From Desulfosarcina sp. (GTDB taxonomy: Bacteria; Desulfobacterota; Desulfobacteria; Desulfobacterales; Desulfosarcinaceae), in contig JAQYWF010000008.1 of the NCBI GenBank assembly GCA_030145105.1, forward strand, positions 1-33,682: a stretch of DNA of 33,682 nt, written 5' to 3'. The notes under the pieces are model-generated. The model saw only the letters and a program-made list of their open reading frames with translations, made no database searches and was not told the DNA's origin. The translations under genes were made by a program, and so were the position numbers. Positions 4,217-19,748 of the stretch are shown piece by piece; position 1 is the first letter of the stretch; the number at the start of each line of letters is the position of its first letter.

Positions 4217-5224
4217 TCATTGCCCATACATGATCCGGGTTTCCACCAATTGACCATCCACATACACCAGTATCGTGGGGTTACCACTTTTTGGAACCAA
4301 AAGCCAGATTTCTTGGCCCGGTGCCAAGAAATCATCAAACAGGCTGAGCGACATCTGCGGTCGGTTCATTCTGACTTTGACCCGTTTCTTTAAAAAACCG
4401 TTTTCCAGAGAGAACCTGAACAGTTCTACCTGATTGGCGTTTTCGGTCCCGTCCATATACCGGCCCTGATTGGATCGGTTTACCGTAAGGTCCACAAGGT
4501 GGCCCGGCGAAACCCGGTGTCCGGCCGGTGGCATCTGATCCACGATGGTATCCAGCGGCACATCGGTCTGGCGAATGATCCGGATGCTTCCCACGGTCAG
4601 CTGCAGCTGTTCCAACTGACGAATGGCCGATTCCGGGGTAAAGCCGGACAGATCGACCATGGGAAATACCGGAGATGACGGCCCCCGGCTGATCAGCAGA
4701 TCGGCACAGGTGTTTCGGGAAACGATTCGACCGGGCGGCGGATATTGTGCCATGATCTGCCCGGGGTCGAACCGGGGGCTGATCATGGCGGACAACGCCC
4801 CCTGGCACAAACCGTTTTCCGTCAACAGGATCCGGCTCTGCTGGAGGGAAAGGCCGGATAAATTAGGCATTAAAATCGTTTCTGGCCCCCTGGAAACACG
4901 AATTTTTACATCCCGGCCCCGCTTGATGGCAGCCCCGGCATCCGGATCCTGATCGATGACGTGGTTTTTTGGTAGCTGGTCATGATATGCCGTGCCTTTA
5001 ACGCGGGTATTGAGGCCCAGGTCCGAAAGGATTTCGAGACCGTACAGGACGTCCTTGCCAACCAGGTCGGGGACGACGACGGTATCTTCCCCCTTGATGA
5101 TCAGGGTCAGCGACACGTAGGCACCAATCCCTGCCATGGACATGAACAGGGCGACCAGCAGAACGATCCGCAGCGTTTTTTTCGCCAGACGCGTTACCGA
5201 TGAAGCGGGGGGAGGGGATGGCAT
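4217..5224 (-). CDS. Membrane-anchored PASTA-repeat protein
   Basis: 335 residues. A basic N-terminus is followed by one transmembrane segment (about 19-43), then about three PASTA repeats beginning VVPDLVGKDVLYGLEIL (about 50), MPNLSGLSLQQSRILL (about 118) and FPMVDLSGFTPESAI (about 187). The last 75 residues form a separate beta-rich tail. The topology predicts an inner-membrane anchor with a periplasmic domain. PASTA repeats in Gram-positives bind peptidoglycan or muropeptides on PBPs and kinases; here there is no kinase or transpeptidase domain, so a cell-wall-binding or scaffolding role is inference. The gene follows the TPR protein by four bases and precedes rpe. In several deltaproteobacteria a stand-alone PASTA protein lies between rsmB and rpe; here the T2SS genes separate it from rsmB. 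Confidence 0.88.
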   Translation of the reverse strand: MPSPPPASSVTRLAKKTLRIVLLVALFMSMAGIGAYVSLTLIIKGEDTVVVPDLVGKDVLYGLEILSDLGLNTRVKGTAYHDQLPKNHVIDQDPDAGAAIKRGRDVKIRVSRGPETILMPNLSGLSLQQSRILLTENGLCQGALSAMISPRFDPGQIMAQYPPPGRIVSRNTCADLLISRGPSSPVFPMVDLSGFTPESAIRQLEQLQLTVGSIRIIRQTDVPLDTIVDQMPPAGHRVSPGHLVDLTVNRSNQGRYMDGTENANQVELFRFSLENGFLKKRVKVRMNRPQMSLSLFDDFLAPGQEIWLLVPKSGNPTILVYVDGQLVETRIMYGQ

Positions 5225-5228
5225 GGGA

Positions 5229-6176
5229 TTAAAATCTTATGGTCAGGCACAGGGCGGCTCCCTTGGGTGACGGGGCCAGGGATAAGGAGATCTGCCTGCG
5301 CTGGTTTAGACGTTCACGGTACTCGGTAATCCGGTCACGGTTGTACTTGTGGGCACTGGAGACGGCACCGTAGATATTACCGGCATAAAACCCGAACCCC
5401 ACGGCACTGATCACGCTGCCGAGGGCGTATAGCTCGTTGTCAAATGACTCCCAGGCCGCCCAGATCAGACCTGCGTTGATCAAAAAAGCGGTGGCCGCAT
5501 CCTGGTATCTTTTGGTGTAAAGCTGGCCGCCGCCAGGCACGATCGAGAGCATTCCGGCCGTGGTCGGATTCTTGAACGGGATGGCATCGCTGAGTGCCAG
5601 GGCCTGCTCCAGGTCGGCTACCTGGAAGCGGTCCTGATTGTCGGGTGAGATCCGACCGAAGGCTTGTTCGGCTTCGTTCCAGCGGGCTTGATCCACATGG
5701 AGCCATCCCAGTTCGTAGCGGGCCCGATCGATGACATCCGATGCTGAAGACAAAGCCACGAGGTTGTGCAGATCCAAAATGGCCTGTTCGATCATTCCCT
5801 GGCGCGCATGGCTGCGGCTGAGCATGAAAAAGGCCTGGTTGTCCAGCGGTGAGCCGGCGAAACCCATGGTTTGTTGGTTGAAAATGGCCGCTGCTGCTTG
5901 ATAGCGGCCGGCGCTGAAGTGGGCCATGCCGGTCTGGAAGCGAGCCTGAGCAATTCTGGGGTCTGCAGGAAAAAAATGGATAAAGCGGTTGAACTCGGCA
6001 ATCGCCTCGTCGACGGCTCCTGAATCGAGGCGGGACTGGGCAAAACGGTATTGGCTGTCCGCATCGATGGTCAACCGGGCGAAGCCGTTGGCAGGTGCTG
6101 CAATCATCAAAAGGGGCACGCCGATGGCGATAATCAGAAAACGGAGCACGGGTTGAAGCACCTTAACGTATCCCAT
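5229..6176 (-). CDS. Exported TPR protein with C-terminal membrane hairpin
   Basis: 315 residues. An N-terminal signal or anchor segment (about 10-32) precedes TPR-like helices from about 40 to 190, with repeated patterns such as AIAEFNRFIHFFPADPRIAQ and ARYELGWLHVDQARWNEAEQ. From about 205 a GMLSIVPGGGQLYTKRYQDA motif leads into two or more hydrophobic segments (about 228-275) resembling the TM2/DUF5683 style of small membrane modules, then a basic tail. It lies 3 bp after the yidD-like gene. A TPR domain next to a membrane hairpin, beside YidD and a T2SS, suggests an envelope-assembly helper, but this is inference. I know of no assigned function. Confidence 0.78.
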   Translation of the reverse strand: MGYVKVLQPVLRFLIIAIGVPLLMIAAPANGFARLTIDADSQYRFAQSRLDSGAVDEAIAEFNRFIHFFPADPRIAQARFQTGMAHFSAGRYQAAAAIFNQQTMGFAGSPLDNQAFFMLSRSHARQGMIEQAILDLHNLVALSSASDVIDRARYELGWLHVDQARWNEAEQAFGRISPDNQDRFQVADLEQALALSDAIPFKNPTTAGMLSIVPGGGQLYTKRYQDAATAFLINAGLIWAAWESFDNELYALGSVISAVGFGFYAGNIYGAVSSAHKYNRDRITEYRERLNQRRQISLSLAPSPKGAALCLTIRF

Positions 6177-6179
6177 CGG

Positions 6180-6539
6180 TCAGCGCGGCCAGACGTCGTT
6201 GTTGCGAACCGGGTCCTGGCAGCGGATGCCCTCGCGGGTCATCACTGACGGACTAAGCTTCAGTTCGTCGCGGCCGCAGCGCATCAGCCGGTCGCTGGCC
6301 ATGATCCATCCTTTGAGGCTCCCATGGCGCTGCACGGCCTGCAGGGCATAGCTGGAGCACGAGGGGGTCATGGGGCAGCGGTGGCCGTCCGCTCCGGACA
6401 GGTAACGCTGGAAAAAGCGGATGGGTGCCGCCATCACCGGCATGGATTCCCCCGGGGGGGGCAGATCGGATGCCTGAGAATCGGCCCATGCGCCGCCGAC
6501 AAACAGGGAAAACAGTGTTGCCAGGTAAAAGGTTTTCAT
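6180..6539 (-). CDS. YidD-like protein with an apparent signal peptide
   Basis: 119 residues from the ATG at 6537-6539. The core RFFQRYLSGADGHRCPMTPS through CSSYALQAVQRHGSLKGW matches the YidD (membrane protein insertion efficiency factor) family, including the two conserved Cys and a third in RLMRCGRDE. E. coli YidD helps YidC insert inner-membrane proteins and is cytosolic/amphipathic; this one begins MKTFYLATLFSLFVGGAWA, a convincing Sec signal peptide, implying a periplasmic location. A longer frame starts at 6686 and overlaps the gspE stop (ATGA), but its first 49 residues are basic and featureless and would bury the signal peptide, so I prefer 6539. An AAGG about ten bases upstream is a modest ribosome site. 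The family is clear, the role less so. Confidence 0.85.
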   Translation of the reverse strand: MKTFYLATLFSLFVGGAWADSQASDLPPPGESMPVMAAPIRFFQRYLSGADGHRCPMTPSCSSYALQAVQRHGSLKGWIMASDRLMRCGRDELKLSPSVMTREGIRCQDPVRNNDVWPR

Positions 6540-6682
6540 GATGTGCCTTATCGTCAACCGTCGGGCATATCCCGAGGGACGCAGAAAGTTTGGTTTTAAT
6601 GTCGATCGTCGAACGCCCCGCATCGAACGCTGAACGACGGGGTCGCTTCGTTGCGTGATTTTAACCATTGGGGCCGGAAGCT

Positions 6683-8440
6683 TCATTCAAAAGCCGATGG
6701 TACCCGTTCATCCGGTCCTTGTTGGGTCACCCGCAAGACCTCTTCGATGGTGGTCGTTCCGGCCAGCACTTTTTCGATGCCGCTTTGGCGCAGGGTCTTC
6801 ATTTTGTACTGCAGGGCGAATTGTCTGATCTGGGTGGCATCGAAGGTTTTCAGTATCAGGTTTTTCAACCCCTCGCGCATGTGCATGATTTCAAATATGG
6901 CAATGCGGCCGCGGTAGCCGGTGTTAAAGCATTTCTCGCAGCCATTGGCCTGATAGAGGATGTGGTTTCTCAATTGCGTCCTGGAAATGCCGATGCTTTC
7001 CAGGATTACACCCGGGGTGTAGGCTTCTTTGCAGTGGTCACACAACACCCGCACCAGCCGCTGGGCGATAACCGCCACAACGGCGGAGGAGATGAGGAAC
7101 GGCTCGACACCGATGTCCACCAGGCGCGTAATCGCACCGGCCGAATCGTTGGTGTGCAGTGTGGAGAACACCAAGTGGCCGGTCAGTGCCGACTGGACGG
7201 CGATGGTGGCGGTTTCCTTGTCACGGATCTCGCCGATGAGGATCACATCCGGGTCCTGGCGGACGATGGCACGCAGGCCGCGGGCAAAGGTGAGATCAAT
7301 TTTCGGATTCACCTGGATCTGGCTGATGCCTTTGAGCTGGTACTCCACCGGATCTTCGATGGTGATGATGTTGATGTCAGGCTTGATGATGGAGGCCAGC
7401 ACGGAATAGAGGGTGGTGGTCTTGCCGCTTCCGGTGGGACCGGTCACCAGGATGATGCCGTTGGGCTGGGTCACCAGCTGGTTGAACAGGTCGTGATCTT
7501 CGGACGACAGCCCCAGTTCCTTCAGGTTCAGGACCTCCTCTGATTTATTCAACAGCCGCATGACCACTCGCTCGCCGAAGGTGGTGGGCAAGGTGGATAC
7601 CCGCACATCCACATTCTGGCTGCCGATTTTGACTTCAAGGCGTCCGTCCTGGGGCAGCCGCTTTTCAGCGATATTGAGTTTGGCCATGACCTTGATTCGT
7701 GAGATAAGCGACGCCTGAATCCATTTTGGCGGCGTGAGCAGGTCGTAGAGAATTCCGTCCACGCGGTATCGCACCTTGAAGCTGTCCTGATACGGCTCGA
7801 TGTGAATGTCGCTGGCGCGGGCCTTGATGGACTGGGAGATGATATGATTGACCAGTTTGATGATCGGGGCATCACTGGTGTCCTCGAGTAGATCGGCAGT
7901 GTCCTCTATCTCGCTGATGATGGTACTGCCGTCCTCTTCCATGTGCTGAACCAGCTGTTCGGCGGTGCCCCGGCTCATGTCAAAGATCAGGTTGATGGCG
8001 GCAAAAATGGCGCTTTTGGTGGAGAGCACCAGGTTGTAGGACGAAAAGCCGATCATTCGAGCCAGGTCGTCCAGGGGATCAAATGCAGCCGGATCATTGA
8101 CGGCGATGATATTGACCATTTCCTCGGGTAAAACGCTAACCCCGGCAGCCGGGATGTTCTTCAGCACCAGCGGCACCATGGCATAGCGCTTGAGGAAACC
8201 GATGGGTGCACTGCGGGTACGATCCTCACCGAAGCTTTCCAAGGGTAGTTCGGGCCAGAAGGGGATGTCGTACTGCTCGCTCAAGGCATCCAGCAATTGG
8301 GTTTCGGTGAGGACCTTACGCTGCATCAGCACCTCAGACAGGCGGCCTCCTTTTTCGCCGTGCAGTCTGACTGCGTCTGCAAAGTCTTCATCAGAGACGC
8401 CGTATTTGCTCTTTATGATATCTTCCAGGGATTTGTTCAT
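6683..8440 (-). CDS. gspE: Type II secretion system ATPase GspE
   Basis: 585 residues, somewhat longer than the typical ~500. This cytosolic hexameric ATPase powers pseudopilus assembly through GspL/GspF. The N-terminal T2SSE-N domain occupies about 1-150. The ATPase core contains Walker A GPTGSGKTT (334-342), the Asp box IEDPVEY (361-367), Walker B ILIGEIRD (400-407, E404) and the His box STLHTND. The zinc tetracysteine is complete: C467, C470, C501 and C504. Its ATG overlaps the gspD stop (ATGA). GspE and PilB are relatives; the flanking GspC/D/N and pseudopilins make GspE the better call. Confidence 0.96.
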   Translation of the reverse strand: MNKSLEDIIKSKYGVSDEDFADAVRLHGEKGGRLSEVLMQRKVLTETQLLDALSEQYDIPFWPELPLESFGEDRTRSAPIGFLKRYAMVPLVLKNIPAAGVSVLPEEMVNIIAVNDPAAFDPLDDLARMIGFSSYNLVLSTKSAIFAAINLIFDMSRGTAEQLVQHMEEDGSTIISEIEDTADLLEDTSDAPIIKLVNHIISQSIKARASDIHIEPYQDSFKVRYRVDGILYDLLTPPKWIQASLISRIKVMAKLNIAEKRLPQDGRLEVKIGSQNVDVRVSTLPTTFGERVVMRLLNKSEEVLNLKELGLSSEDHDLFNQLVTQPNGIILVTGPTGSGKTTTLYSVLASIIKPDINIITIEDPVEYQLKGISQIQVNPKIDLTFARGLRAIVRQDPDVILIGEIRDKETATIAVQSALTGHLVFSTLHTNDSAGAITRLVDIGVEPFLISSAVVAVIAQRLVRVLCDHCKEAYTPGVILESIGISRTQLRNHILYQANGCEKCFNTGYRGRIAIFEIMHMREGLKNLILKTFDATQIRQFALQYKMKTLRQSGIEKVLAGTTTIEEVLRVTQQGPDERVPSAFE

Positions 8441-10815
8441 GGGTTGTTTTTTATGATCAGCGTGTCCGTCAAACCCTGTCCGGACAGGGTGTCCCGGGCC
8501 GTCTGTGCCGCAACGCGGTCGGGGAAGCCGCCGATTTGCACCCGATACCAGATCTTGCCGTCCACATCCGTTTCGGTAATATGGGCTTGATGCCCCATCT
8601 CTTTTAGTCTCTCCACCGACTCGATAGCCGACAGTTGGTCGCTAAAGGACTGCACTTGGACGAGATAGCCACCGGCCTCACTGCTGCTGCTGGCTGATCC
8701 TGCTGCGAATGGCATGATCTGCATGACGTGGTTGCTGCTTTCGGTCCCAGTTTCACCATTGTCATCGATTTTGGTTTTCGGGACGGTGTCGCTTCCCGGA
8801 CCTGTTTCGATGGGTGGCGTGGTCATCACGTTTTCACCGCCTTGGTACAGCCTTATCTGTGTCTCGCGCATCTCATCGATTGCGTTCTTTTTGGACTCAT
8901 GTATGGTTGATGCTTCCTTGGGGTTCTGGACCACCTTTGGGGTGATGAAGATGAACAGATTGGATTTTTCGCTGCCCTTGGACCGGGTTTTAAAGAGCCA
9001 GCCCAGTCCGGGTATGTCGCCCAGGCAGGGGACCTTGTATTCGGTCTGGGAGAACGTGTCGTCGATAAGCCCGCCGATGACGACGGTGCTGCTGTCCTTG
9101 ACCATCACCGTGGTTTCCACGGTACGCTTCAGCGTCGTCGGCCGATTATCCACACTGCTCTCCAGGGCGGAGACTTCAAGCGACAGGTTCAATCGAACCA
9201 TCCGGTCCTTGTTGATCTGAGGCGTGATCTTGAGGGTCTTGCCCACATCACGGTACTCGAAGGAGTTGAATGTGTCGTTGTTGGTTGTCGATGTGGCGGT
9301 CTGGAAAGGGATGTTCTTGCCCACGGTAATGCTGGCTTCTTGGTTATCGGTGGTAAGCAGTTGGGGTGTCGACAGGATGTTGATATCGCGGTCTTTTTTA
9401 TAGGCCTGCACGATGGCCGCGATGCTGGGAAATGAGACACCTGCAATTTCGATCGCTTGGCCGAACAGGCCTAAGGAGAGACCAGACGTGAGGGCCGGAA
9501 TCAGGCCCCCGGTGGCGGGATTAAATTGTAGGTTCGAGTCGTCCGTGGTGAAACCGCCGCCGATGATCCCTTGTCGGTCTTGGGGCAAGTTCACGTCGTC
9601 GCCCACGACCCATTCGGTGCCCAGGTCGAAGCTTTTTGCCGCATTGACCTCCATGATCAGGGCTTCGATGTAGACCATGGCGCGGGGAATATCGATCTGA
9701 TGGATGATCTCCACCAACGTGGCATAGTCATCCCGATCGGCGGTGATGATCAGGCTGTTGGTGGCCTTGTCGGCCGTAATCGTTACTTTGTCGGAAATCA
9801 CAGGCGCTTCTTTGGCACCTGCGGCTTTGGTCTTGTCCTCTGTGGGGAGATCCTTGAGCACGGCGACGATCTCCTCCGCCGCCGCATATTCCAGGAAGTA
9901 GACGTGGATCTTCTCCTTGCCCTTGGGGGTCTCCTGGTCCAGGGTGTCGATCAGGCTTCGGATCCGATTGGTGTCAACCTCGCTGGCCACCATGATGATG
10001 CTGTTGGTGCGTTCGTCAGCTACGAAGGCGGCGCTGCGATCCGATGAGGCCTTGCCTTTTTTGGCCGCGACCACGGATGTTTTAACAAACACAATTTCCA
10101 GCAGGGACACCAGCTTGGCCGCATCGGCGTTGTGGATCGGAAATATGGTGATTTCGCGGCCCACGCCGGGGATGTCGATGGTTTTCAATATCTTCATCAA
10201 ACGGGCGATATTGGAGTAATTGTCGGTGATGATCAGGGTGTTGGTGGGTGCATAGGAGAGGATGACGCTGCTTTTGGAGACCATGGGGGTGAACAGTCGC
10301 TTGACTTCGTCCGGGTCGGCATAGCGCAGGGGCATCAGTTGGGTGACTACCTGGTCATCGTCTGAATCGCCTTTGGCCTGGGTTCGGGTCTCGATGTTTT
10401 TGGTGCGTGCGTCCGGTGCGGGAATGATCTTGGTCAGCTTACCGGTCTCCACGGTGGCGAAACCGTGGACGTCGAGCACCGATTCGAACACCTTGAAGGC
10501 TTCATCAACAGAGATCTTGGAAGGGGAGATGATGGTCACCTTGCCCTTGACGCGCTGGTCGATGACGAAGTTTTTTCCGGTGAGCTCACTGATGAATTTG
10601 ATGAACACGCTGATATCCACATTGTTGAAATCAATGGAGACAAAGCGCTGTGAACCATTTGCCGCCGTGCTGCCGGCGGCCGCCAGACCTGGATTCTGAC
10701 CCTGATCCTGATTTTGGGCGGCGGTGCTGGCGGCAAGGAGAAAAAATGTCAGCATGGCGATCAGTGCGCCGACCATGCATTTTCTGGTTGCATCCATTGT
10801 GTTTTCAATAGCCAT
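8437..10815 (-). CDS. gspD: Type II secretion system secretin GspD with C-terminal SPOR domain
   Basis: 792 residues: the outer-membrane secretin channel. A signal peptide covers about 1-34 (ending ASTAAQ). The N0 domain follows (FVSIDFNNVDISVFIKFISE), then N1-N3 with repeated RTNSIIMVAS/ATNSLIITAD-type strands, and the secretin domain with VGKNIPFQTAT, VVIGGLIDD and VPCLGDIPGLGWLF. After the secretin core comes a polar linker (about 630-712) and then about 78 residues beginning GGYLVQVQSFSDQLSAIESV and ending in WYRVQIGGFPDRVAAQTA, a clear SPOR domain. SPOR domains bind denuded septal peptidoglycan; they are not part of standard GspD. The ATG at 10813-10815 has AAGAAG just upstream; it follows gspC by 49 bp containing a small stem-loop. 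No outer-membrane pilotin gene is evident. Confidence 0.95.
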   Translation of the reverse strand: MAIENTMDATRKCMVGALIAMLTFFLLAASTAAQNQDQGQNPGLAAAGSTAANGSQRFVSIDFNNVDISVFIKFISELTGKNFVIDQRVKGKVTIISPSKISVDEAFKVFESVLDVHGFATVETGKLTKIIPAPDARTKNIETRTQAKGDSDDDQVVTQLMPLRYADPDEVKRLFTPMVSKSSVILSYAPTNTLIITDNYSNIARLMKILKTIDIPGVGREITIFPIHNADAAKLVSLLEIVFVKTSVVAAKKGKASSDRSAAFVADERTNSIIMVASEVDTNRIRSLIDTLDQETPKGKEKIHVYFLEYAAAEEIVAVLKDLPTEDKTKAAGAKEAPVISDKVTITADKATNSLIITADRDDYATLVEIIHQIDIPRAMVYIEALIMEVNAAKSFDLGTEWVVGDDVNLPQDRQGIIGGGFTTDDSNLQFNPATGGLIPALTSGLSLGLFGQAIEIAGVSFPSIAAIVQAYKKDRDINILSTPQLLTTDNQEASITVGKNIPFQTATSTTNNDTFNSFEYRDVGKTLKITPQINKDRMVRLNLSLEVSALESSVDNRPTTLKRTVETTVMVKDSSTVVIGGLIDDTFSQTEYKVPCLGDIPGLGWLFKTRSKGSEKSNLFIFITPKVVQNPKEASTIHESKKNAIDEMRETQIRLYQGGENVMTTPPIETGPGSDTVPKTKIDDNGETGTESSNHVMQIMPFAAGSASSSSEAGGYLVQVQSFSDQLSAIESVERLKEMGHQAHITETDVDGKIWYRVQIGGFPDRVAAQTARDTLSGQGLTDTLIIKNNP

Positions 10816-10864: not shown

Positions 10865-11734
10865 CTATCTGATGTTGTATTCGATGTTCTTTTCCCGTCC
10901 CCTGCGTTTTAACTGTACGGAGAGGGTGGATGCGGATTTAAGACTGTCAACCAGCTTCAACGCATCATCTACCGTTGTGATTTCGGTGCCGTCTACACCG
11001 GCGATGATGTCTCCGTTTCTAAGGCCCATTCTACGGAAAATGGAATTGGGCTTGATGCTGGAGAGCGCCAGGCCCGCCGGCACACCGTTTTCCATGTGTG
11101 GCTGGATCTGCACCTGGGTCATCAGCGATGCCACGTCCGTCATGGACTGCTCGATATAAGATCGCCTCAGGGAAATCCGCTGGGCACGAACCGCACCGGA
11201 GGATGGTGCCGCCGCACGAGCGGGAAGCCCGCCAGGTCGGGAGACGGCTTTTCCGGACACCAGTTCCTGCATCTGGAGCACTTCATCCTTTCCGTTTACC
11301 GTGAGGACGACTTTCTCCCTGTGTATTTCCTTGACCGTGGCCGTCTGGATGGCATCGCCGGCACGATACAGGTTCTGCTCGCGTGCCTTGACATCTTCGA
11401 TGACCGCATAGTCACCGTCGTCGCTGCCGGAAACCGTTCCCCACAGCTTCAGGTTCAGCTTGGTCTCTTCCAGGGATTCGACATCTACTTTTTCCGGCTG
11501 GGGTTCGCTGTCTGAACGTGTATTGAACAGGTTCCGCTCCAAGATTGCCTTGTATGCGGTCAGTGGGCGGCTGTTCGTGCCAGTTTCGCCCACCCGGTAT
11601 ACATTCTGTTGGGTTGATATAGGGGACTGGGACAGCCCAGCAGAAAGGGTCCCGTAAAAACCGTCCACGACCACGTATGCCGAAACGGTGATGCAGAGGA
11701 GGTTGACAAATGTGAAAATGGCTTTTGGTATCAT
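10865..11734 (-). CDS. gspC: Type II secretion system protein GspC (HR + PDZ domains)
   Basis: 289 residues. One N-terminal transmembrane helix (about 5-27) leads to the periplasmic homology region (about 60-150), with the typical ILERNLFNT and LNLKLWGTVSG motifs, a flexible Pro/Ala linker, and a PDZ domain (about 200-285) containing GLALSSIKPNSIFRRMGLRN and GDIIAGVDGTEI. GspC links the inner-membrane platform to the GspD N0 domain and helps select substrates. The gene is 3 bp after gspN and upstream of gspD, the order expected in deltaproteobacterial T2SS loci. Confidence 0.93.
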   Translation of the reverse strand: MIPKAIFTFVNLLCITVSAYVVVDGFYGTLSAGLSQSPISTQQNVYRVGETGTNSRPLTAYKAILERNLFNTRSDSEPQPEKVDVESLEETKLNLKLWGTVSGSDDGDYAVIEDVKAREQNLYRAGDAIQTATVKEIHREKVVLTVNGKDEVLQMQELVSGKAVSRPGGLPARAAAPSSGAVRAQRISLRRSYIEQSMTDVASLMTQVQIQPHMENGVPAGLALSSIKPNSIFRRMGLRNGDIIAGVDGTEITTVDDALKLVDSLKSASTLSVQLKRRGREKNIEYNIR

Positions 11735-11737
11735 CGC

Positions 11738-12607
11738 CTATCTCATGGACATATCGGGGTTGTCAATGGAGCCGCGCACCCGAAAGGTCAGTCCCCGGGT
11801 TCCCAGTGTCTGGGTGTTGACGATCCCCTTGGGGATAGTCTCTTGAAGCCGGGCGACCAACTCCGGCCGGGGTTTCGCATTTCCGGTGAGGTTCAGGCGG
11901 CTCTGCTCGAAGGGATGCCTCAGCTCTATGGTTCCGGTAATTTTACCTTCAAGCATCGGGCCATCGAAAGCCAGGGATTTGAGCCGCAGGTTCCCGCCAC
12001 TGAGTGAAAAGTCCGCATCCGTCTGATCCATCACCAGTTCGGTGATGCCGAAAAAAGGCGCTTTCAGGGTGATGTGCAGATCCGGTACGGTCAACAACCC
12101 GCTGGTCATGCCCAACGGGGAACGCGTCCCGTCGTGTGTCATTCGGCCTTTTAGGGAACCGGTAAGGGTGAAAGGCACATTGGTTTTGATTGCATCGAGC
12201 TTGTCCAGGCGGATTTCAGAGATGTCCGCTTCCACCCGCAAGGGGCCCGATGGGCCGGTGGTTTCCAGGGTTGCTCGGCCATTTATCGTCCCATCGGCGA
12301 TATGTGCCTGGAACCGAACCTGTTTTTTGTCCTGCAGCAGGGTCGCCAGGTCGGGTGAGACACGGGCATCTTCAAAGTGAGCCAGCCGAACGCCGTCGCG
12401 GTTCAGGTCGATGTCGATCATTTTAAGTCCCGGCGGCAGGGACGGTCGAATCGTCTTAGCCACCATACTCAACGACGGGTCGATGGCAGCCAGTCGGCCG
12501 TCCACGTAATCTTTAATCGCCTGGTCGGGAAACAGCAGGATCAAAAAGAGGGCTACCGCCAGCAGGGCGTATAACAGATAAGCGAAAATGGCCTTAACGG
12601 AAATCAT
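11738..12607 (-). CDS. gspN: Type II secretion system protein GspN
   Basis: 289 residues with one N-terminal transmembrane helix (about 7-27) and a long periplasmic beta-rich domain (LTGSLKGRMTHDG, ADFSLSGGNLRLKSLAF, EGKITGTIELRHP), resembling the AsmA-like repeats of the GspN family found in deltaproteobacterial and Leptospira-type T2SS operons. GspN is an accessory inner-membrane component; its exact role is poorly defined. The position between gspM (8 bp) and gspC (3 bp) is the usual one and supports the call. Confidence 0.85.
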   Translation of the reverse strand: MISVKAIFAYLLYALLAVALFLILLFPDQAIKDYVDGRLAAIDPSLSMVAKTIRPSLPPGLKMIDIDLNRDGVRLAHFEDARVSPDLATLLQDKKQVRFQAHIADGTINGRATLETTGPSGPLRVEADISEIRLDKLDAIKTNVPFTLTGSLKGRMTHDGTRSPLGMTSGLLTVPDLHITLKAPFFGITELVMDQTDADFSLSGGNLRLKSLAFDGPMLEGKITGTIELRHPFEQSRLNLTGNAKPRPELVARLQETIPKGIVNTQTLGTRGLTFRVRGSIDNPDMSMR

Positions 12608-12615
12608 AAGAAGCG

Positions 12616-13143
12616 CTACGTCTCCAGTGTTTCGACTTGAAATACCGTATTGATCAGATCAGCCTTCTTCTCTCCTTTAGTAATGGAGAGCCGCTTAATG
12701 GAAATCATGTCCGTGGATGTTTCAATGCCGTGCAGATAGGCCAGAAGCTGCGCCATGGTAATTTCCTGTAACTTCATTTCCACCATGGAAAGCCGGTAAG
12801 GGCTGTCCTTCTGGCTCGTGGTGGTCGGCCTCATATAGGCGATATGGCTTTTGACGCCCGTCTGTCCAGCTAGGGTTTCCAGGAATGAAAAGAGGGTGAA
12901 GCCCTGTTTGCGTCTTTTCAGGTGACGTTGTGCCGCTTGCGCCTTTTCAGCCGTTTTGAGGTATTCTGCCTGAAGCAGCTGAATCTGTTCCCGCTCCTGC
13001 TGCCGTGTGGTCATCGTTCGCGATAGTTGGGCGTTTTTCTCGAACAAGGGGAAAACCAGAACCTGCAATACCAGAAAAATGACAATGGCGGCCGTTGCCG
13101 CAGCCACGCCGATTTTTTCCCGTTTGTTAAGTTTGATGGCCAT
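12616..13143 (-). CDS. gspM: Type II secretion system protein GspM (PilO-like)
   Basis: 175 residues. A short cytosolic basic stretch (KLNKREK), one transmembrane helix (about 10-33), a predicted coiled coil rich in Q/E/K (about 38-75), and a C-terminal ferredoxin-like region (about 85-175). This is the architecture of GspM/PilO bitopic proteins, which dimerise with GspL and stabilise the inner-membrane platform. Sequence similarity is weak, as usual in this family; the identification rests on architecture and on its position between gspL and gspN, six and eight bases away. Confidence 0.83.
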   Translation of the reverse strand: MAIKLNKREKIGVAAATAAIVIFLVLQVLVFPLFEKNAQLSRTMTTRQQEREQIQLLQAEYLKTAEKAQAAQRHLKRRKQGFTLFSFLETLAGQTGVKSHIAYMRPTTTSQKDSPYRLSMVEMKLQEITMAQLLAYLHGIETSTDMISIKRLSITKGEKKADLINTVFQVETLET

Positions 13144-13149
13144 GTTGGG

Positions 13150-14595
13150 TTAAAAATCCAGTTTGAGTTTGAATCTCACCCGGTTTCCCGATTTCTCGAG
13201 GTCGGCCGAGCTGATGGTCACACTTTTAAACAGGTCCGCTTCTTCCAACCGCCCCTTGATGTCGTCAACCGTGTTGAAGTTGTCTGTATCGCCGGACAGC
13301 ACGACGTTGTCGGCGCCGGCAACCATGCGGTTGACCTTGACGTCTGCAGATGATGGGATCTGCTGGCTCAGGGCGTTGAGGATGTCGATGATCCGGACAC
13401 GGGCACCCGTCAGATCGAAGCCGCCGCTGCCGTCACCTGCCGCTTTGATTTTGATCTGCATCTGCTGCAAGGGGTTCACGACACGGGTGACTTCGGGAAA
13501 GGTACTTTTGAAAACCATTTCAATTTGTCGGTCCAGTTCGGCCAGGCGTCCTTCTTTGGCATTCACCGATAGGATTTGGCCGCCCAGAGTAGTCACCAGG
13601 GCAAGGACGACCAGCACCGCGCTCAGGATGATATGTTTGCGATATTCGCTCCAGTAGTGCTGGATCGTTGACCGCTCTGTGGAGAAATTGACGCCGGTGA
13701 CGGTCTCGGTTTCCATTAGTGCTAAGGCCAGGGCGATATCCAGATGTCCGGATTGCCAATCCGGTGTATCCAACGCACCATTCAGCCGGGGAAACGTCCG
13801 TAAGTCGTCGATGGATTTAAGCGGCACACCCAACAATGTGGATGATCCGTTCCCGCTGGTGAGCAGCGGGGACTGGGGACCAGCGGAAAAAATCGCCGAC
13901 GGGTTGACCGCGATTCCTAGGCTCTCCTGAAGGGCGGTGAATGTTCGATTCAGGGTTGTTTCCAGGCTGCGAATGATCGGATTGCCGTCACTGGCAATCG
14001 GAAGGGTGCGGACCATGCGAACGTGCCCTGAACAGACGGCGTAGATCGTGTGATTGCCCTCTCCGGTATCGATGAAGAGAAAATCTCCGTTGACGGCGGT
14101 CATTGTGGAGATGAACCGGGCCGCGGCATATCCGCCGGGCATAATCACAGCCGGCCTTAAATTCACCGTTCCGAGAAGATCCAGGTACCGCTGGATCTCC
14201 ATTTTTTTTACGGAGAAGGTCAGCAGGTCCTGCTCCTTGTCACGTTTTACGGCCTCGAAATCGAAAATCAGTTCCTCCACCGGAATCGGCAGAGCGGGCT
14301 CCAATTCAAAGGGGAGAATCTGCCGGATTTTCTTGATGTCATGGAAGGGAACAGAAAGATTTCTGAAGGAGACGATGGTTGCCGGGATGCCCAGCACACA
14401 GGTGGCACCGGTGGGTTTGAACGTTTCCACGATGGCCTGAAGGGCTTCTTTTATGCCTTCATCGTCCGCTTTCTTGTCCGCCGGGATGGGAAAATACCCC
14501 TGCGACTCCAGCAGGCTGCCTTTGAAACTACTGTCCAGCAGAACGGCTGCGATCGATTCCTCTCGAATTTCCAGGCTGAGAATCTTGCGGCTCAT
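13150..14595 (-). CDS. gspL: Type II secretion system protein GspL (PilM-PilN-type fusion)
   Basis: 481 residues. An N-terminal actin-like cytosolic domain (about 1-310) resembles PilM, with LSLEIREESIAAVLLD, an LPFELEPALPIPVEEL motif and the nucleotide-fold FLFIDTGEGNHTIY. A transmembrane helix follows (about 323-343), then a coiled-coil and PilN/GspL periplasmic domain ending at 481. The protein bridges GspE in the cytosol with GspM and GspC at the membrane. It heads the gspLMNCDE half of the locus after a 420-bp AT-rich gap, so it may have its own promoter. Confidence 0.9.
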   Translation of the reverse strand: MSRKILSLEIREESIAAVLLDSSFKGSLLESQGYFPIPADKKADDEGIKEALQAIVETFKPTGATCVLGIPATIVSFRNLSVPFHDIKKIRQILPFELEPALPIPVEELIFDFEAVKRDKEQDLLTFSVKKMEIQRYLDLLGTVNLRPAVIMPGGYAAARFISTMTAVNGDFLFIDTGEGNHTIYAVCSGHVRMVRTLPIASDGNPIIRSLETTLNRTFTALQESLGIAVNPSAIFSAGPQSPLLTSGNGSSTLLGVPLKSIDDLRTFPRLNGALDTPDWQSGHLDIALALALMETETVTGVNFSTERSTIQHYWSEYRKHIILSAVLVVLALVTTLGGQILSVNAKEGRLAELDRQIEMVFKSTFPEVTRVVNPLQQMQIKIKAAGDGSGGFDLTGARVRIIDILNALSQQIPSSADVKVNRMVAGADNVVLSGDTDNFNTVDDIKGRLEEADLFKSVTISSADLEKSGNRVRFKLKLDF

Positions 14596-15014: not shown

Positions 15015-16079
15015 TTATTCTGCCTGCCACATCAAGGATTCACAAGTCCATCTGCCGGTGTCTTGTTCTTTTACCCGCTGGACCACCACATTGACGGTGG
15101 CGGTTCTTTCATTGCGCGTTGCAGTTGAGACGATGCGGAACAGGTCGCTGGACGCGGTGATCAGATTGGGACTGATGGTGATGCCCCCGGCCCCCGGCAC
15201 ATTTTGGTACCAACCGGCATTGGTGATGGTGTGGGTATACGTCTCATCTGCTTTGGCCACGCGATAGTCGGCCAGGGCTTCCGCAAGATCCGAATTTTCG
15301 GAAGGCAGCAGGGCGGCGAGCACGCCAACCTCGGCCGTTGAGATGTTGACCTTGCCGTCATAGGTGAAGCGCCCGTCACCGGCCGCCGACACACCGTGAA
15401 CCGTCAACAGGGATGAGAGCCCAACTGCACCGCCCGCACCGGCAAACAGTTCCGGGGTAATCCCCTGAACGAGGGCGACTTCTCCCAGGTGATCGAAGGG
15501 ACCGTTTTTACACTGGTATGGCGACTCCAGACCCTCGTAGTAGTCGGACTCAGCGCCGCTCAGACCGGTAATGGCCTCGTCATCCCCGTCATCCATCCAG
15601 TCTTTCAGCGAATTGATAATCATATTGGGGTCGCTGTCCGGCACTTCCTCAAACAGGGAGAACACCTGATCCAGCAATCGCTCCCAGAGGAAGCGCTGGC
15701 TGGCTGAGAACTGCTGGCCCTCGGGAAACTTGACCAGCGCATTCACCTGGATTTTGCCTCGCTCATCGGTGATGCGGACATCGACACGGCCTTCATCATA
15801 GGGGATCAACCCCATTATTTCGGCCACTTTTTCCGGGTTGGCCCAATCCTCCTGTAGTGTATCCGTGTCATTCTCTTTGCGGTCATTGATCAGCATCACC
15901 ATGGCAGCATGGACCCCGGAGGCGGCCATCTCGGAAAGCACCACCCGCTCTCTCGCAAGGAAGGCGCCGGTGACCGAACTGCGGATTCGGCGATTCAGGG
16001 CCAATCCGGCGGTGAGCAGCACGGCCACCACGCCGATGGCGACCAGGATCGCCACCCCCCGGCGGTTTCCCAGAACCAT
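15015..16079 (-). CDS. gspK: Type II secretion minor pseudopilin GspK
   Basis: About 354 residues from the ATG at 16077-16079. GspK is the large tip pseudopilin that, with GspI and GspJ, initiates the pseudopilus. The leader ends NRRG before VAILVAIGVVAVLLTAG, a prepilin-peptidase site; Glu at +5 is absent, as is usual for GspK. The large C-terminal domain contains ITDERGKIQVNALV, and NSLKDWMDDGDDEAITGLSG with acidic residues like the calcium-binding part of GspK. A longer frame starts at 16118, overlapping gspJ by 26 bp; I prefer 16079 because it gives an eight-residue leader, although neither start has a strong ribosome site. The gene ends the gspF-K block. Confidence 0.9.
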   Translation of the reverse strand: MVLGNRRGVAILVAIGVVAVLLTAGLALNRRIRSSVTGAFLARERVVLSEMAASGVHAAMVMLINDRKENDTDTLQEDWANPEKVAEIMGLIPYDEGRVDVRITDERGKIQVNALVKFPEGQQFSASQRFLWERLLDQVFSLFEEVPDSDPNMIINSLKDWMDDGDDEAITGLSGAESDYYEGLESPYQCKNGPFDHLGEVALVQGITPELFAGAGGAVGLSSLLTVHGVSAAGDGRFTYDGKVNISTAEVGVLAALLPSENSDLAEALADYRVAKADETYTHTITNAGWYQNVPGAGGITISPNLITASSDLFRIVSTATRNERTATVNVVVQRVKEQDTGRWTCESLMWQAE

Positions 16080-16092
16080 TTTGCCCGTGGGG

Positions 16093-16797
16093 CTATTCAG
16101 CTGCTTCACGGTACACATGCAGAGGAACCCTTGTGGTGAATGGTTTGGGTCTGGACGGCGTTCCCACCGTCAACCGGATCTCAACCGACCGCGGTGTGGC
16201 GTAATCGGTGTCGGCCGATTCCGAATCCCAACGGTCGCTCGTTTCATCTTCGGCACCCAGGTATGCGAATTCGAGGGCCAGTATGTTTTCGCATAAAATG
16301 GGATCATCCACACTCTCCTCGAACTCGGGAAAGGGATAGAGGTGGTCGGCACGGCGCAGGACCAGCGTCTCGTCAGGCCGCTGATCAACATAGTAGACGA
16401 TGCGGCATACCCCCTGCCGCCGATCCCGATTCATGGCCAGGTGGGCCAGCGATGCGAATCGCAAGCGGCAGAAGCTGCTGCCGGATAGGTCGGTCGTATC
16501 TCCTACCAGACGATAGGGATCTTGCGGGTCATTGAACGCGGGCTTGGTATATCGCGGATAGTCAGAAACGACCAGGCCTCCCAGATCGGCAGCCATGCGC
16601 CCCAGGCTGGTGCGAGCCGACTCGAAGATGGCCACATCGCCGCCGACGGTATCGGCACTGGAGAAAACAACCCGGAACGAGCCGAAAACAGTGGTGATGA
16701 CCACGGCGAAGATAAAGATCGCCACCATGATTTCCAACAGGGTGAACCCGCTGCCGGAGAGCGCTGGCGTGGATGGCCGCCGGTGTGCGCTATTCAT
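16093..16797 (-). CDS. gspJ: Type II secretion minor pseudopilin GspJ
   Basis: 234 residues. The type IV prepilin motif GSG/FTLLEIMVAIFIFAVV starts at about residue 15, with Glu at mature position 5, so it needs a prepilin peptidase. The rest is a pseudopilin domain with SARTSLGRMAADLGGLVVSD and the late YVDQRPDETLVLRRADHLYP region typical of GspJ, a tip component that complexes with GspI and GspK. The start overlaps the end of gspI by 8 bp, and an AGG-type ribosome site lies within gspI. Confidence 0.92.
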   Translation of the reverse strand: MNSAHRRPSTPALSGSGFTLLEIMVAIFIFAVVITTVFGSFRVVFSSADTVGGDVAIFESARTSLGRMAADLGGLVVSDYPRYTKPAFNDPQDPYRLVGDTTDLSGSSFCRLRFASLAHLAMNRDRRQGVCRIVYYVDQRPDETLVLRRADHLYPFPEFEESVDDPILCENILALEFAYLGAEDETSDRWDSESADTDYATPRSVEIRLTVGTPSRPKPFTTRVPLHVYREAAE

Positions 16798-17218
16798 ACA
16801 AGAGCCTGTATGTATCCAGTTTAATTACGGATGCTTCCCCGTCGAGGCTGATGGTCACGGTAATCCGCTTGAGCGTCGGCCCGTCTTCCTTGAGCAGGTC
16901 GGACGAGACGTTCTCCGTTTCGATCTGCCATGCGTAACCGGGGTGGGTGTCGCCGAAATCGCCGCTGTCGCCGGATAGGTCCTTCAGTTCGATCGTGTCG
17001 ATGTCGGCCAGTTTCTGGCCCATCAACAGGGTCGCTACCGTGTCGAACCGTCCCCTGGCATCCATGAACAGGGTCTGGGTATGCATGCGATAAATGGCCA
17101 TCAGCGCAATGGCCACCACGGACAGGGCCACCATCACTTCCATGAGGGTGAAACCGTATTCCGGGTTGCCATTTTGGGTGAGCTCGGTTCGGCGGCAGTC
17201 AGGGTTGTCGGACGCCAT
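16790..17218 (-). CDS. gspI: Type II secretion minor pseudopilin GspI
   Basis: About 142 residues. The prepilin site is YG/FTLMEVMVALSVVAIALMA with Glu at +5; a MGQKLADIDTIEL stretch follows, as in GspI. Two in-frame ATGs occur at 17227 and 17218; GGAAGG directly abuts the first but is nine bases from the second, so I choose 17218, which places the start two bases after the gspH stop. GspI forms the core of the tip complex with GspJ and GspK. It overlaps gspJ by 8 bp. Confidence 0.91.
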   Translation of the reverse strand: MASDNPDCRRTELTQNGNPEYGFTLMEVMVALSVVAIALMAIYRMHTQTLFMDARGRFDTVATLLMGQKLADIDTIELKDLSGDSGDFGDTHPGYAWQIETENVSSDLLKEDGPTLKRITVTISLDGEASVIKLDTYRLLYE

Positions 17219-17220
17219 GG

Positions 17221-17790
17221 TTACCATCCTTCCGGACCCCGGACCAGATTGACCCCGGCCAGAAAGGGTTCGATGACAAAAGCCAGGCGATCGCCGTCAT
17301 TGGTTCGTATACGGATGACGGCTTTGTCGGAATAGCCCTTTGGAAAAAAAGCGATGGGGATGGTCCCGCTGGATACACGCTCGGTCTGGGAAAAGGCCAC
17401 ATGGTCAATGTTTACCCCGCGTGGCAGGGAATAGCCGGCCTCGCGGGCGGCGTCTGCATCGGTATCCGCCATGCCGGCTTCGGTGATCCAGAGCCGCTGG
17501 ACGTCGGGCGACACGTTGAGCACGAAGGTTTTGTTTTCAACAACCGCTTTTTCCTTGAGGCCACGGACAGTGGCAATGATCCAGCGTGCGGTTTCGTCGC
17601 TGCCGTTGGAAAAGAGTCCGCCTTCCAATCGGGGGATGGCCACCACCAGCATGATGCTGATCAGCGCGGTCACGACGATCATTTCAATCAGTGTGAATCC
17701 ACGGCTGCCCAAAAATGGGGGTCCTGTTTTGTTTTCCGGGGGTGCCTGCGTGTGCGAGGCGTGTAGACGGGCAGACTGGCTCGATGTCAT
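17221..17790 (-). CDS. gspH: Type II secretion minor pseudopilin GspH
   Basis: 189 residues. A long 31-residue leader precedes the prepilin site SRG/FTLIEMIVVTALISIMLVV (Glu at +5), and the C-terminal domain has TARWIIATVRGLKEKAVVEN and a GspH-like beta-sandwich region. No in-frame ATG closer to the cleavage site exists, so the long leader is kept. GspH probably joins the GspG fibre to the tip complex. It lies 47 bp after gspG, a spacer that contains a stem-loop. Confidence 0.88.
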   Translation of the reverse strand: MTSSQSARLHASHTQAPPENKTGPPFLGSRGFTLIEMIVVTALISIMLVVAIPRLEGGLFSNGSDETARWIIATVRGLKEKAVVENKTFVLNVSPDVQRLWITEAGMADTDADAAREAGYSLPRGVNIDHVAFSQTERVSSGTIPIAFFPKGYSDKAVIRIRTNDGDRLAFVIEPFLAGVNLVRGPEGW

Positions 17791-17837: not shown

Positions 17838-18293
17838 TTATTCGGACTCCCAGCTGTTAATATCCGCATCTTTGTCCTCACCGCCGGCCGCCCCGTCGGC
17901 GCCGTAAGCGATGATGTCGAAATCATCATGGATGCCAGGACTCAGGTAGATGAAATCATTGCCCCAGGGGTCTTTGGGCACCTTGCCCTTTTCCAGATAG
18001 CCGCCCTTGCGCCAGTTTTTGGGAATGTTGCCGGAGGCGGGCTGCTCCACCAGGGCCTGTATCCCCTGCTCGGTGGATGGATACATGCCATTGTCCAGTT
18101 TGTAAAGCTTGAGGGCCGTGCCAATGCTTTCGATTTGCATTTTGGCCTTGAGTTGCTTGGCCTGCTCCGGACGGCCCATGATGCGCGGGACGATCAGGCC
18201 GGCCAGAATGCCGAGAATGACGATGACCACCATCAGCTCGATCAGGGTGAAACCGCGGCAGTTGCCCACTTTTTGCGGGTGAGACAGCTTCAT
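17838..18293 (-). CDS. gspG: Type II secretion major pseudopilin GspG
   Basis: 151 residues from the ATG at 18291-18293, chosen because a strong GGAGG lies just upstream; the frame could extend to 18347 but without a ribosome site. The leader ends NCRG before [24 protein letters not shown], with Glu at +5. The mature domain has the GspG marks: [41 protein letters not shown] and a Gly/Asp-rich C-terminal calcium loop ([19 protein letters not shown]). GspG polymerises into the pseudopilus that pushes substrates through GspD. It lies between gspF and gspH; the 228-bp spacer to gspF carries heptad repeats. Confidence 0.96.
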
Positions 18294-18443
18294 AATTCCT
18301 CCATCATTCGTTACCCGGTGTTTAACCGGCGCCGTTGAACCCTTCATGTTTCTCGAAAATAAATACTAACCCAATGCGACCCAACAATCAAGCACACAAG
18401 GTCGCAGCTCAAAGCTCGAAGGTGAAAGCCATCAACCAATTCA

Positions 18444-18521: not shown

Positions 18522-19748
18522 TTACCCAACCAGCTGGTTCATTTCGAAAATGGGCAGACAGATGGAAAGAACGATAAACAGCACGACCACGGCCATAACC
18601 AGGATCATCACCGGCTCCAGCATGGCCATCATGCTCATGATCGATGACTGAACTTCGTTTTCATACACCTCGGCGATTTTGTAGAGCATGGATTCCAATT
18701 CACCGCTTTGCTCACCCACCTGAACCATCTGTACGGCCAAATCGGGAAAGACGTCATCGGCCGCCAGCGACAAACCCAGTCCCTGGCCTTTTTCGACTTC
18801 ACTGGATGCCTTTTCGATGAGGCTGGAGATCACCACATTGCCGGTGACATTTCTGACGATCTCCAGGGCTGGCAGCATAGTCACGCCGTTTTCAAGCAGG
18901 GATGCGAGGGTCCGGGCAAAACGGGCCACGGCGATCTTTTTCAGCAACATGCCCATGACGGGCATGGAAAGCAATATCCGATCTGTGGTAACCAGCCCGC
19001 GTTCCGTTTTTCTAAAGGCCTTTAAGGCTACCAGGCCGGCGACGATCACAACCACGAGCAGCCACCAGAAGCGTTTGAACAGATCGCTGGCCGCGATGAG
19101 AAACCGGGTCGGGGTGGGCAGCGCCTGATTCATGTCCACGAAGATGGTGGTGATGTTGGGGATGACGAAGGTCATCAGAAAAAAAAGCACCAGGGTGCCG
19201 ATGGCGGTCATGAGGATGGGATAGGCCATGGCGGTTTGGATGCGGGCCTTGAGCTCCTGCTGTTTCTCCATAATGTCCGCCAAGCGCTGGAGAACGATTT
19301 CCAGTGTTCCCGAGGTCTCTCCGGCACGCACCATGTTGATGTAAATCTGAGAGAAAACCGACGGGTAAAGCGTCAGGGACGAGGCAAAGCTGTTGCCCTC
19401 TACAATGGAATCCTTGATCCGGGCAACGATCTTGGTGAACCCATGGATTTTGGTCTGGGAGACCAGGGTGGTCAGCGCGGTAACCAGCGGAAATCCGGCA
19501 CCGGTCAGCGTCGCCAGCTGGCGAGTCCACAGGCTGACATGGGCCGGCTTGACACGGCTGAACAGGCTCTGGAAGCTTACGCCTCGGGTCTCCTTGCTGG
19601 TTTCGCCGGCCGTGACCTCTTTGACGGTGACGGGAAAACTGCCCATGGCGCGGATTTTCTGCCGTGCCGCCTGGGCGCCGTCGGCATCGATGATTCCGGT
19701 GACAGTTTTTCCCTTGCTGTCAAGGGCCTCGTAGTCGTAAACGGGCAT
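18522..19748 (-). CDS. gspF: Type II secretion inner-membrane platform protein GspF
   Basis: 408 residues, standard length. Two GspF/PilC cytoplasmic domains (about 70-195 and 270-395) are each followed by membrane segments (about 170-190, 222-240 and 375-398). Motifs include WTRQLATLTGAGFPLVTAL, the mirrored FARTLASLLENGVTMLPALE, and YPILMTAIGTLVLFFLMTF. GspF sits in the inner membrane below the pseudopilus and contacts GspE and GspL. The ATG lies 14 bp after the rsmB stop, with AGGA upstream, placing it in the def-fmt-rsmB transcription unit. Confidence 0.95.
   Translation of the reverse strand: MPVYDYEALDSKGKTVTGIIDADGAQAARQKIRAMGSFPVTVKEVTAGETSKETRGVSFQSLFSRVKPAHVSLWTRQLATLTGAGFPLVTALTTLVSQTKIHGFTKIVARIKDSIVEGNSFASSLTLYPSVFSQIYINMVRAGETSGTLEIVLQRLADIMEKQQELKARIQTAMAYPILMTAIGTLVLFFLMTFVIPNITTIFVDMNQALPTPTRFLIAASDLFKRFWWLLVVVIVAGLVALKAFRKTERGLVTTDRILLSMPVMGMLLKKIAVARFARTLASLLENGVTMLPALEIVRNVTGNVVISSLIEKASSEVEKGQGLGLSLAADDVFPDLAVQMVQVGEQSGELESMLYKIAEVYENEVQSSIMSMMAMLEPVMILVMAVVVLFIVLSICLPIFEMNQLVG

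What the first reader, a model, noticed from the sequence alone, without database searches (positions are those of the whole stretch)
8437..8680. Secretin GspD carries a C-terminal SPOR domain
The last ~78 residues of GspD have the SPOR pattern (YLVQVQSF, then a WYRVQIGGF second strand) after a polar linker. Ordinary GspD ends with the secretin core or an S-domain that binds a pilotin. A SPOR domain binds glycan-stripped septal peptidoglycan, so this secretin might be held to the wall or directed to the division site, perhaps replacing a pilotin or GspAB-type wall passage; no gspS, gspA or gspB is seen here. The fusion is seen; the targeting role is inference.
Basis: partly seen in the sequence, partly recalled or inferred. 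Interest (0 to 1): 0.66.

Follow-up and report, generated by a model that had tools for sequence, protein, structure and literature searches.

The report
Secretin with C-terminal wall-binding SPOR tail
The outer-membrane pore of a protein-secretion machine in a family of sulfate-reducing bacteria carries, at its tail end, a small domain of the kind that grips stripped cell-wall sugar chains at division sites, which probably ties the pore to the wall.

Summary
Confirmed: the GspD of this Desulfosarcina-like genome ends in a true SPOR domain (PF05036, E=1.6e-13, residues 714-783), after a conserved post-core segment and a variable polar linker. AlphaFold gives the β-α-β-β-α-β fold (pLDDT 85); its best PDB match is the RlpA SPOR domain with denuded glycan. 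It is no assembly accident: 24 of the 27 genomes of the family in which any part of this gspD was found have it, as do one genome each of two more families of the order. Pfam finds SPOR in 26 of 26 such proteins and 0 of 53 other GspDs. The domain is under purifying selection (dN/dS about 0.19; linker 0.60), and contact residues Q/S/W/R are kept in 24/24/23/25 of 26. Two relatives carry LysM in the same place. Best explanation: an outer-membrane-side, multivalent peptidoglycan clamp for the secretin ring; enrichment at septa is possible but unshown. The only published SPOR secretin found is Legionella LspD, where it is N-terminal. New variant of a known kind.

The parts
8437..10815 (-). gspD, type II secretion secretin, 792 aa; N-terminal Sec-type signal peptide by eye
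8446..8676 (-). C-terminal SPOR domain, residues 714-790; Q720, S723, W756, R758 at the glycan-contact positions
   Evidence: Pfam; model; fold match; residues
8680..8829 (-). polar, fast-evolving linker, residues 663-712
   Evidence: dN/dS 0.60 and 31.5% mean identity within the genus
8830..8901 (-). conserved post-core segment (S-domain-like, residues 639-662), seen in SPOR-tailed and SPOR-less GspDs
   Evidence: tails
8926..9405 (-). secretin core (PF00263), residues 471-630
10426..10635 (-). GspD N0 domain, residues 61-130; no domain match precedes it (in Legionella LspD a SPOR is reported there)
   Evidence: PMC9239104
6683..8440 (-). gspE ATPase, start overlaps gspD stop by 4 bases
10865..11734 (-). 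gspC (GspC_delta)
11738..12607 (-). gspN (GspN_Lepto type)
12616..13143 (-). gspM
   Evidence: below curated cut-offs
13150..14595 (-). gspL
15015..16118 (-). gspK
   Evidence: over the Pfam cut-off, under the NCBIfam one
16093..17790 (-). gspJ, gspI, gspH minor pseudopilins
   Evidence: weak, assigned partly by order
17838..18347 (-). gspG major pseudopilin
18522..19748 (-). gspF

Best explanation
The SPOR tail is a covalent peptidoglycan clamp of the T2SS secretin. Each GspD subunit ends, on the periplasmic side next to the outer membrane, in a flexible linker and a SPOR domain. A ring of about 15 subunits would therefore carry about 15 grips for glycan strands stripped of their peptides. 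This holds the pore in the wall from the outer-membrane side and should enrich secretins where amidases have made denuded glycan, above all at septa and young poles. Shown: the domain by profile, its predicted fold, its conserved contact residues, purifying selection, clustering on the GspD tree, and LysM tails at the same place in another lineage. Inferred: periplasmic position and 15-fold stoichiometry (from solved GspDs), glycan binding, anchoring, and any direction of targeting.
For: SPOR E=1.6e-13; four-stranded SPOR model and RlpA-glycan complex as top structural match. Pfam finds SPOR in 26 of 26 tails and in 0 of 53 GspDs chosen as SPOR-less. Of 26 domains Q is kept in 24, S in 24, W in 23, R in 25. 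These are the FtsN positions Q251, S254, W283 and R285, four of the five whose mutation reduces septal localisation; the fifth, I313, was not compared, and S254A is tolerated. The Q and R positions contact glycan in RlpA (PMC6895207, passages). Within the genus, 8 sequences and 28 pairs: SPOR dN/dS 0.19 with 65% identity, linker 0.60 with 32%. Tree of 124 GspDs: the SPOR label needs 5 changes against a mean of 22.2 for shuffles. Two f34 GspDs carry one or two LysM domains in the same place.
Against: No binding or localisation data. The tail is missing in G004 and G006 in an otherwise syntenic cluster, so it is not essential for keeping a T2SS. The contact Q is E in 2 of 26, and the RlpA R311 position is Q in 9 of 26, including this one. 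SPOR proteins can also act through other proteins (DamX and DedD stimulate PBPs; PMC7642682, abstract). TPR tails, not wall binders, occupy the same place in other lineages. The full-length model is useless (pLDDT 35), so the tail's geometry is not modelled.
Confidence: 0.62

Rival explanations
1. Septal targeting is the point: the tail brings secretin monomers to the division site, where the wall is open, so that the 15-mer assembles into new wall, as PilQ AMIN domains do for type IVa pili.
For: SPOR specificity for denuded, septum-enriched glycan (PMC6895207, passages); AMIN-dependent midcell recruitment of the PilQ machine before oligomerisation (PMC5285504, passages); contact residues kept.
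Against: No localisation data. LysM, not known as septum-specific (recalled), fills the same place elsewhere. The SPOR is C-terminal, on the outer-membrane side, unlike PilQ AMIN and LspD SPOR, which sit before N0.
Confidence: 0.3
2. The SPOR tail replaces the pilotin or the GspAB wall-passage complex.
For: No gspS, gspA or gspB among the 20 window genes scanned. PulS/OutS and AspS families 0 of 40 each. G000 and the three g4 genomes gave no GspA match at E<1e-100. Legionella, with an N-terminal SPOR on LspD, also lacks GspAB (PMC9239104, passages).
Against: GspA-like match at E<1e-100 in 20 of 24 SPOR-GspD genomes; in G002 it is AAA_22 + PG_binding_1 with a T2SSB gene directly downstream; PF16537 in 30 of 40 relatives, 22 over cut-off. 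The two pilotin families are equally absent in SPOR-less relatives. Of 48 tree rows, SPOR with GspA 19 and without 3, SPOR-less with 15 and without 11; only 2 independent pairs, so no statistical power.
Confidence: 0.07
3. The SPOR tail recruits or activates wall enzymes (PBPs, amidases, lytic transglycosylases) so that the wall is locally remodelled for the secretin, rather than clamping it.
For: DamX and DedD SPOR proteins stimulate PBP1A and PBP1B (PMC7642682, abstract).
Against: The conserved residues are those of the glycan groove; among the cluster genes compared across relatives none is a wall enzyme.
Confidence: 0.12
4. Neutral passenger or annotation/assembly artefact.
For: Two related genomes lack the tail (G004, G006).
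Against: 24 of 27 family genomes with this gspD, six genera, dN/dS 0.19, conserved contact residues.
Confidence: 0.03

Closest known systems
Legionella pneumophila LspD (T2SS secretin with predicted SPOR)
   Same: A T2SS secretin that carries a SPOR domain; no known pilotin. PMC9239104 calls it the only T2SS secretin known to have one (passages; the domain also in PMC6617341, passages).
   Different: There the SPOR is N-terminal, before N0, so at the inner-membrane end of the channel; here it is C-terminal, after the post-core segment, at the outer-membrane end. Legionella lacks GspAB; 20 of 24 SPOR-GspD genomes here encode a GspA-like protein.
PilQ with N-terminal AMIN domains, and TsaP (LysM), of type IVa pili
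   Same: Secretin held to, or recruited by, peptidoglycan (PMC5285504 passages; TsaP in PMC9239104 passages).
   Different: Other domain types; N-terminal, or on a separate protein; a pilus machine.
GspA/GspB (ExeAB, OutB)
   Same: Ties a T2SS secretin to the wall (PMC6532946 passages; PMC9239104 passages).
   Different: Separate inner-membrane proteins; GspB/ExeB acts on N0/N1. Homologues coexist with the SPOR tail in most relatives.
RlpA, FtsN, DamX, DedD SPOR proteins
   Same: Same domain family, predicted fold and contact residues.
   Different: Division or morphogenesis proteins; PMC6895207 (2019, passages) states that all known SPOR proteins are of that kind. A secretion pore is not (nor is LspD, if its predicted SPOR is real).

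Membership tests
T2SS secretin GspD | N0, three N domains, secretin core, GspD equivalog score | tested here: met
   (523.7 bits, cut-off 351.35)
T2SS secretin GspD | lies in a gsp gene cluster | tested here: met
   F, G, H, I, J, K, L, M, N, C, D, E on one strand
SPOR domain (PF05036) | profile score over the curated cut-off | tested here: met
   51.2 bits against 21
SPOR domain (PF05036) | four-stranded RNP-like fold with two helices | tested here: met
   (prediction)
SPOR domain (PF05036) | glycan-contact residues (FtsN Q251, S254, W283, R285) | tested here: met
   Q720, S723, W756, R758; kept in 24, 24, 23, 25 of 26. RlpA R311 position is Q here; FtsN I313 position not compared
SPOR domain (PF05036) | binds denuded glycan; localises to septa | not testable with these tools
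   needs protein and cells
SPOR-bearing secretin of the LspD kind | SPOR before N0 | tested here: not met
   no domain match before N0 at residue 61; SPOR at 714-783
Pilotin-dependent secretin | GspS-type pilotin in the genome | tested here: not met
   PF09691 and PF16549: 0 of 40 genomes, own included; both ring in the E. coli control. Unknown pilotin kinds not excluded; own genome 86.75% complete
Pilotin-dependent secretin | Ala-Phe motif after the core (PMC6532946, passages) | tested here: not met
   no AF pair in residues 639-713, by reading the sequence
GspAB-dependent secretin (ExeD kind) | GspA with PG_binding_1 and GspB in the genome | tested here: inconclusive
   GspA-like match (E<1e-100) in 20 of 24 SPOR-GspD genomes, domain content checked in one, G002; neither gene found in G000

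The most novel reading that the evidence does not exclude
A further way of fixing a T2SS secretin to the wall: from the outer-membrane side, by a covalent tail that lineages of this phylum have fitted independently with SPOR or LysM, and that in the SPOR version steers a secretion machine to division sites.
Probability: 0.3. Interest if true: 0.72.

Novelty: new variant of a known kind. Interest (0 to 1): 0.54.

Why it matters
How a secretin ring too large for the wall's pores is passed through and held in peptidoglycan is still being worked out (PMC10329019, passages). A lineage in which the pore itself carries a glycan grip at its outer-membrane end, with relatives that lack it or carry LysM there, makes the question testable by domain deletion and swap. 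It would also be, with the predicted SPOR of LspD, a SPOR protein outside division and morphogenesis, where PMC6895207 (passages) places all known ones.

Tried and rejected
Replacement of GspAB or pilotin by SPOR: tested by families and by homologue search, not supported. SPOR in place of the S-domain: rejected, since the post-core segment (loosely KK..ID..RE..IKLY, by eye) precedes the tail in SPOR and non-SPOR GspDs.

Origin of the domain inside the genome: of four other SPOR proteins in G000, the ArgS-adjacent membrane SPOR protein is most often the nearest, but identities are only 26-42%; no source is claimed. Full-length structure prediction with three sequences failed (mean pLDDT 35) and is not used. 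PDB sequence search of the tail gave no significant SPOR match. tblastn against plasmids: 492 records matched and 0 covered at least 80% of the query, so no GspD-SPOR of this kind is seen there at that sensitivity (20 of 492 rows read).

Limits: the genome survey reaches only the window's phylum; other phyla could not be searched. In some searches I fetched the GspDs with open frames of about 735 aa or more; shorter ones were mostly judged SPOR-less from frame length alone, 40 of the shorter ones were fetched and read, and gene fragments cut by contig ends (for example G085, G102, G104, G117, G165, G305) remain undetermined. Pfam was run on the 26 SPOR-tailed and 53 SPOR-less proteins and on 10 further long-tailed GspDs, which had no extra domain. 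The remaining fetched GspDs were judged by my own SPOR profile, built from six of the 26 tails; hence the Pfam check of all 26. The GspA search used my own threshold (E<1e-100) and no tree, so orthology is not shown.
Full report
What is there. Window 8437-10815 (-) encodes a 792-aa GspD in a T2SS cluster (F, G, H, I, J, K, L, M, N, C, D, E on one strand), followed by yidD, a TPR protein and a three-PASTA protein. Pfam finds N0 (61-130), Secretin_N three times, Secretin (471-630) and SPOR (714-783, E=1.6e-13). Residues 714-790 are window 8446-8676.

Fold. AlphaFold2 on residues 709-792 with two relatives gives strands 717-724, 745-751, 754-764 and 786-790 and helices 727-739 and 767-779, mean pLDDT 85.3. 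Foldseek's three matches at E<=0.001 are RlpA SPOR with denuded glycan, RlpA SPOR and CwlC SPOR; DedD and DamX follow lower down, mixed with unrelated ferredoxin-like folds. A full-length model failed.

Who has it. Named relatives are Desulfosarcina sp. SH-MAG93 (85% identical in the best segment) and Desulfobacteraceae bacterium UBA2771 (78%). The window's family holds 30 genomes. This gspD was found, whole or in part, in 27: 26 at E<=1e-80 plus a C-terminal fragment in G011. Of these 27, 24 have the SPOR tail; G004 and G006 have only a SPOR-less gspD; G025 is cut by a contig end. G005, G008 and G028 gave none. G009 has a SPOR-tailed gspD in the cluster and a second, SPOR-less gspD elsewhere. 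In 147 genomes of the class (116 with a match at E<=1e-80) and 148 of the phylum (53 with a match), sets that overlap each other and the earlier one, I fetched the GspDs with long open frames; two more SPOR tails appeared, G169 (f56) and G080 (f40), each the only genome held of its family. Pfam over all 26 SPOR-tailed proteins: SPOR in 26 of 26. Over 53 SPOR-less GspDs, 50 of them outside the family: 0 of 53.

History. A tree of 124 GspDs, built without the tail (quick LG+G4 tree), puts f1 and f56 on one side of a branch (SH-aLRT 97); G080 sits elsewhere with SPOR-less relatives (SH-aLRT 99). The SPOR label needs 5 changes, against a mean of 22.2 for shuffled labels. One SPOR-less row inside the clade, L029, is the truncated G025 gene, so one change may be spurious. 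The simplest reading is one gain before f1+f56, losses within the genus, and a separate gain in f40; the counts cannot tell gain from loss. In G004 and G006 the cluster order is the same and gspE follows gspD directly.

Selection. In eight genus members (28 pairs), dN/dS is 0.10 for the N domains, 0.13 for the core, 0.24 for the post-core segment, 0.60 for the linker and 0.19 for SPOR; mean identities are 87, 83, 64, 32 and 65%. Synonymous differences are high in the short regions (pS about 0.6), so the ratios are rough; 19 of 28 pairs were finite for the linker and 25 of 28 for SPOR. Contact residues over 26 domains: Q 24, S 24, W 23, R 25; the RlpA R311 position is R in 17 and Q in 9.

Other tails in the same place. 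G093 and G141 (f34) end in two and one LysM domains (E=2e-27 and 4.7e-13). TPR tails occur in four f70 genomes and one f89 genome; Pfam was run on one of each, and the other three f70 tails are assigned by eye. G032 has a Fervidolysin_NPro-like tail. Ten other long-tailed GspDs have no further domain. LysM is a wall-binding domain, so two unrelated wall binders at this place argue that the C-terminus meets the wall; the TPR tails show that other functions can sit there too.

Wall-passage and pilotin genes. PF16537 (GspB) is found in 30 of 40 relatives, 22 over cut-off; in some genomes (for example G017, G018, G020, G036) a hit lies beside another, pilus-like secretin (positions). In G002 the GspB-like gene follows a 607-aa AAA_22 + PG_binding_1 protein. 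Matches to that GspA-like protein at E<1e-100 are in 20 of the 24 SPOR-GspD genomes, missing in G000, G015, G019 and G021; two of the 20 are partial (G007 in two pieces, G016 residues 1-292) and the G003 copy holds a stop codon. They are also in SPOR-less G004 and G006 and in 16 of 30 genomes of the order outside the family. Whether this pair serves the T2SS GspD is not shown. PulS/OutS and AspS: 0 of 40 each, E. coli control positive. G000 is 86.75% complete, so its missing genes are uncertain.

How it most likely works. Solved GspDs are 15-subunit rings (15 chains in each of the ten best PDB entries). [quoted passage not shown] The linker plus SPOR therefore most likely hangs from the outer-membrane end of the channel, and 15 copies would grip glycan strands together. 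That gives firm hold and a bias towards glycan made bare by amidases. The binding, stoichiometry, direction and septal bias are inferences.

What is known. Searches for SPOR domain with secretin, GspD and type II secretion returned Legionella LspD as the only T2SS secretin that I saw described with a SPOR; PMC9239104 says so outright (passages), and there it is N-terminal. Of the 10 papers listed I looked into three. The library holds open-licence PMC papers only, and domain databases may list the architecture unremarked. I saw passages of PMC9239104, PMC6617341, PMC5285504, PMC6895207, PMC12274547, PMC6532946 and PMC10329019, and the start of the abstract of PMC7642682 in a listing.

Verdict. 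Observation confirmed; wall anchoring likely, septal targeting open, replacement of GspAB or pilotin not supported. New variant of a known kind.

Noticed in passing
L058 2207-4651 (-); L059 1640-3898 (+): GspDs of two f34 genomes (G093, G141) end in two and one LysM domains instead of SPOR: an independent wall-binding tail.
   Followed up: partly
L075, L076, L078, L079, L080: GspDs of f70 (four genomes) and f89 (one) end in TPR repeats, the fold of PilF/TadD-type pilotins (recalled): possibly a built-in pilotin. Pfam run on L075 and L076 only.
   Followed up: partly
L042 2866-5010 (+): GspD of G032 ends in a Fervidolysin_NPro-like domain (E=1.7e-6), a protease prodomain on a secretin.
   Followed up: no
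L047 4636-6846 (+): G009 has a second, SPOR-less GspD (72% identical to the window's); tblastn found none of the 11 other cluster proteins tried in this 12-kb stretch. Beside it lie a Chlam_PMP/beta-helix protein and a TPR protein.
   Followed up: partly
L139 4984-7643 (-): GspA-like (AAA_22 + PG_binding_1) and GspB-like pair away from the T2SS cluster, next to an M23 peptidase with a Csd3-like domain.
   Followed up: partly
window 4217-6686 (-): yidD, a TPR protein and a three-PASTA protein follow gspE in the same order in G009, G004, G006 and, as far as the fetched stretches go, G023 and G013; PASTA is another wall-linked domain (recalled).
   Followed up: partly
L095, L097, L101 C-termini: Some f34 GspDs end in a conserved short peptide of the form FFSVP.M..N, perhaps a binding tag.
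   Followed up: no
L146 18-1271 (+): Own genome has a protein with an L,D-transpeptidase-like stretch (by eye) and a C-terminal SPOR; the five SPOR matches in G000 also include an RlpA-like and an ArgS-adjacent membrane protein (by eye).
   Followed up: no
window 25284-26516 (-): BLUF-EAL blue-light-sensing phosphodiesterase by its domains.
   Followed up: no
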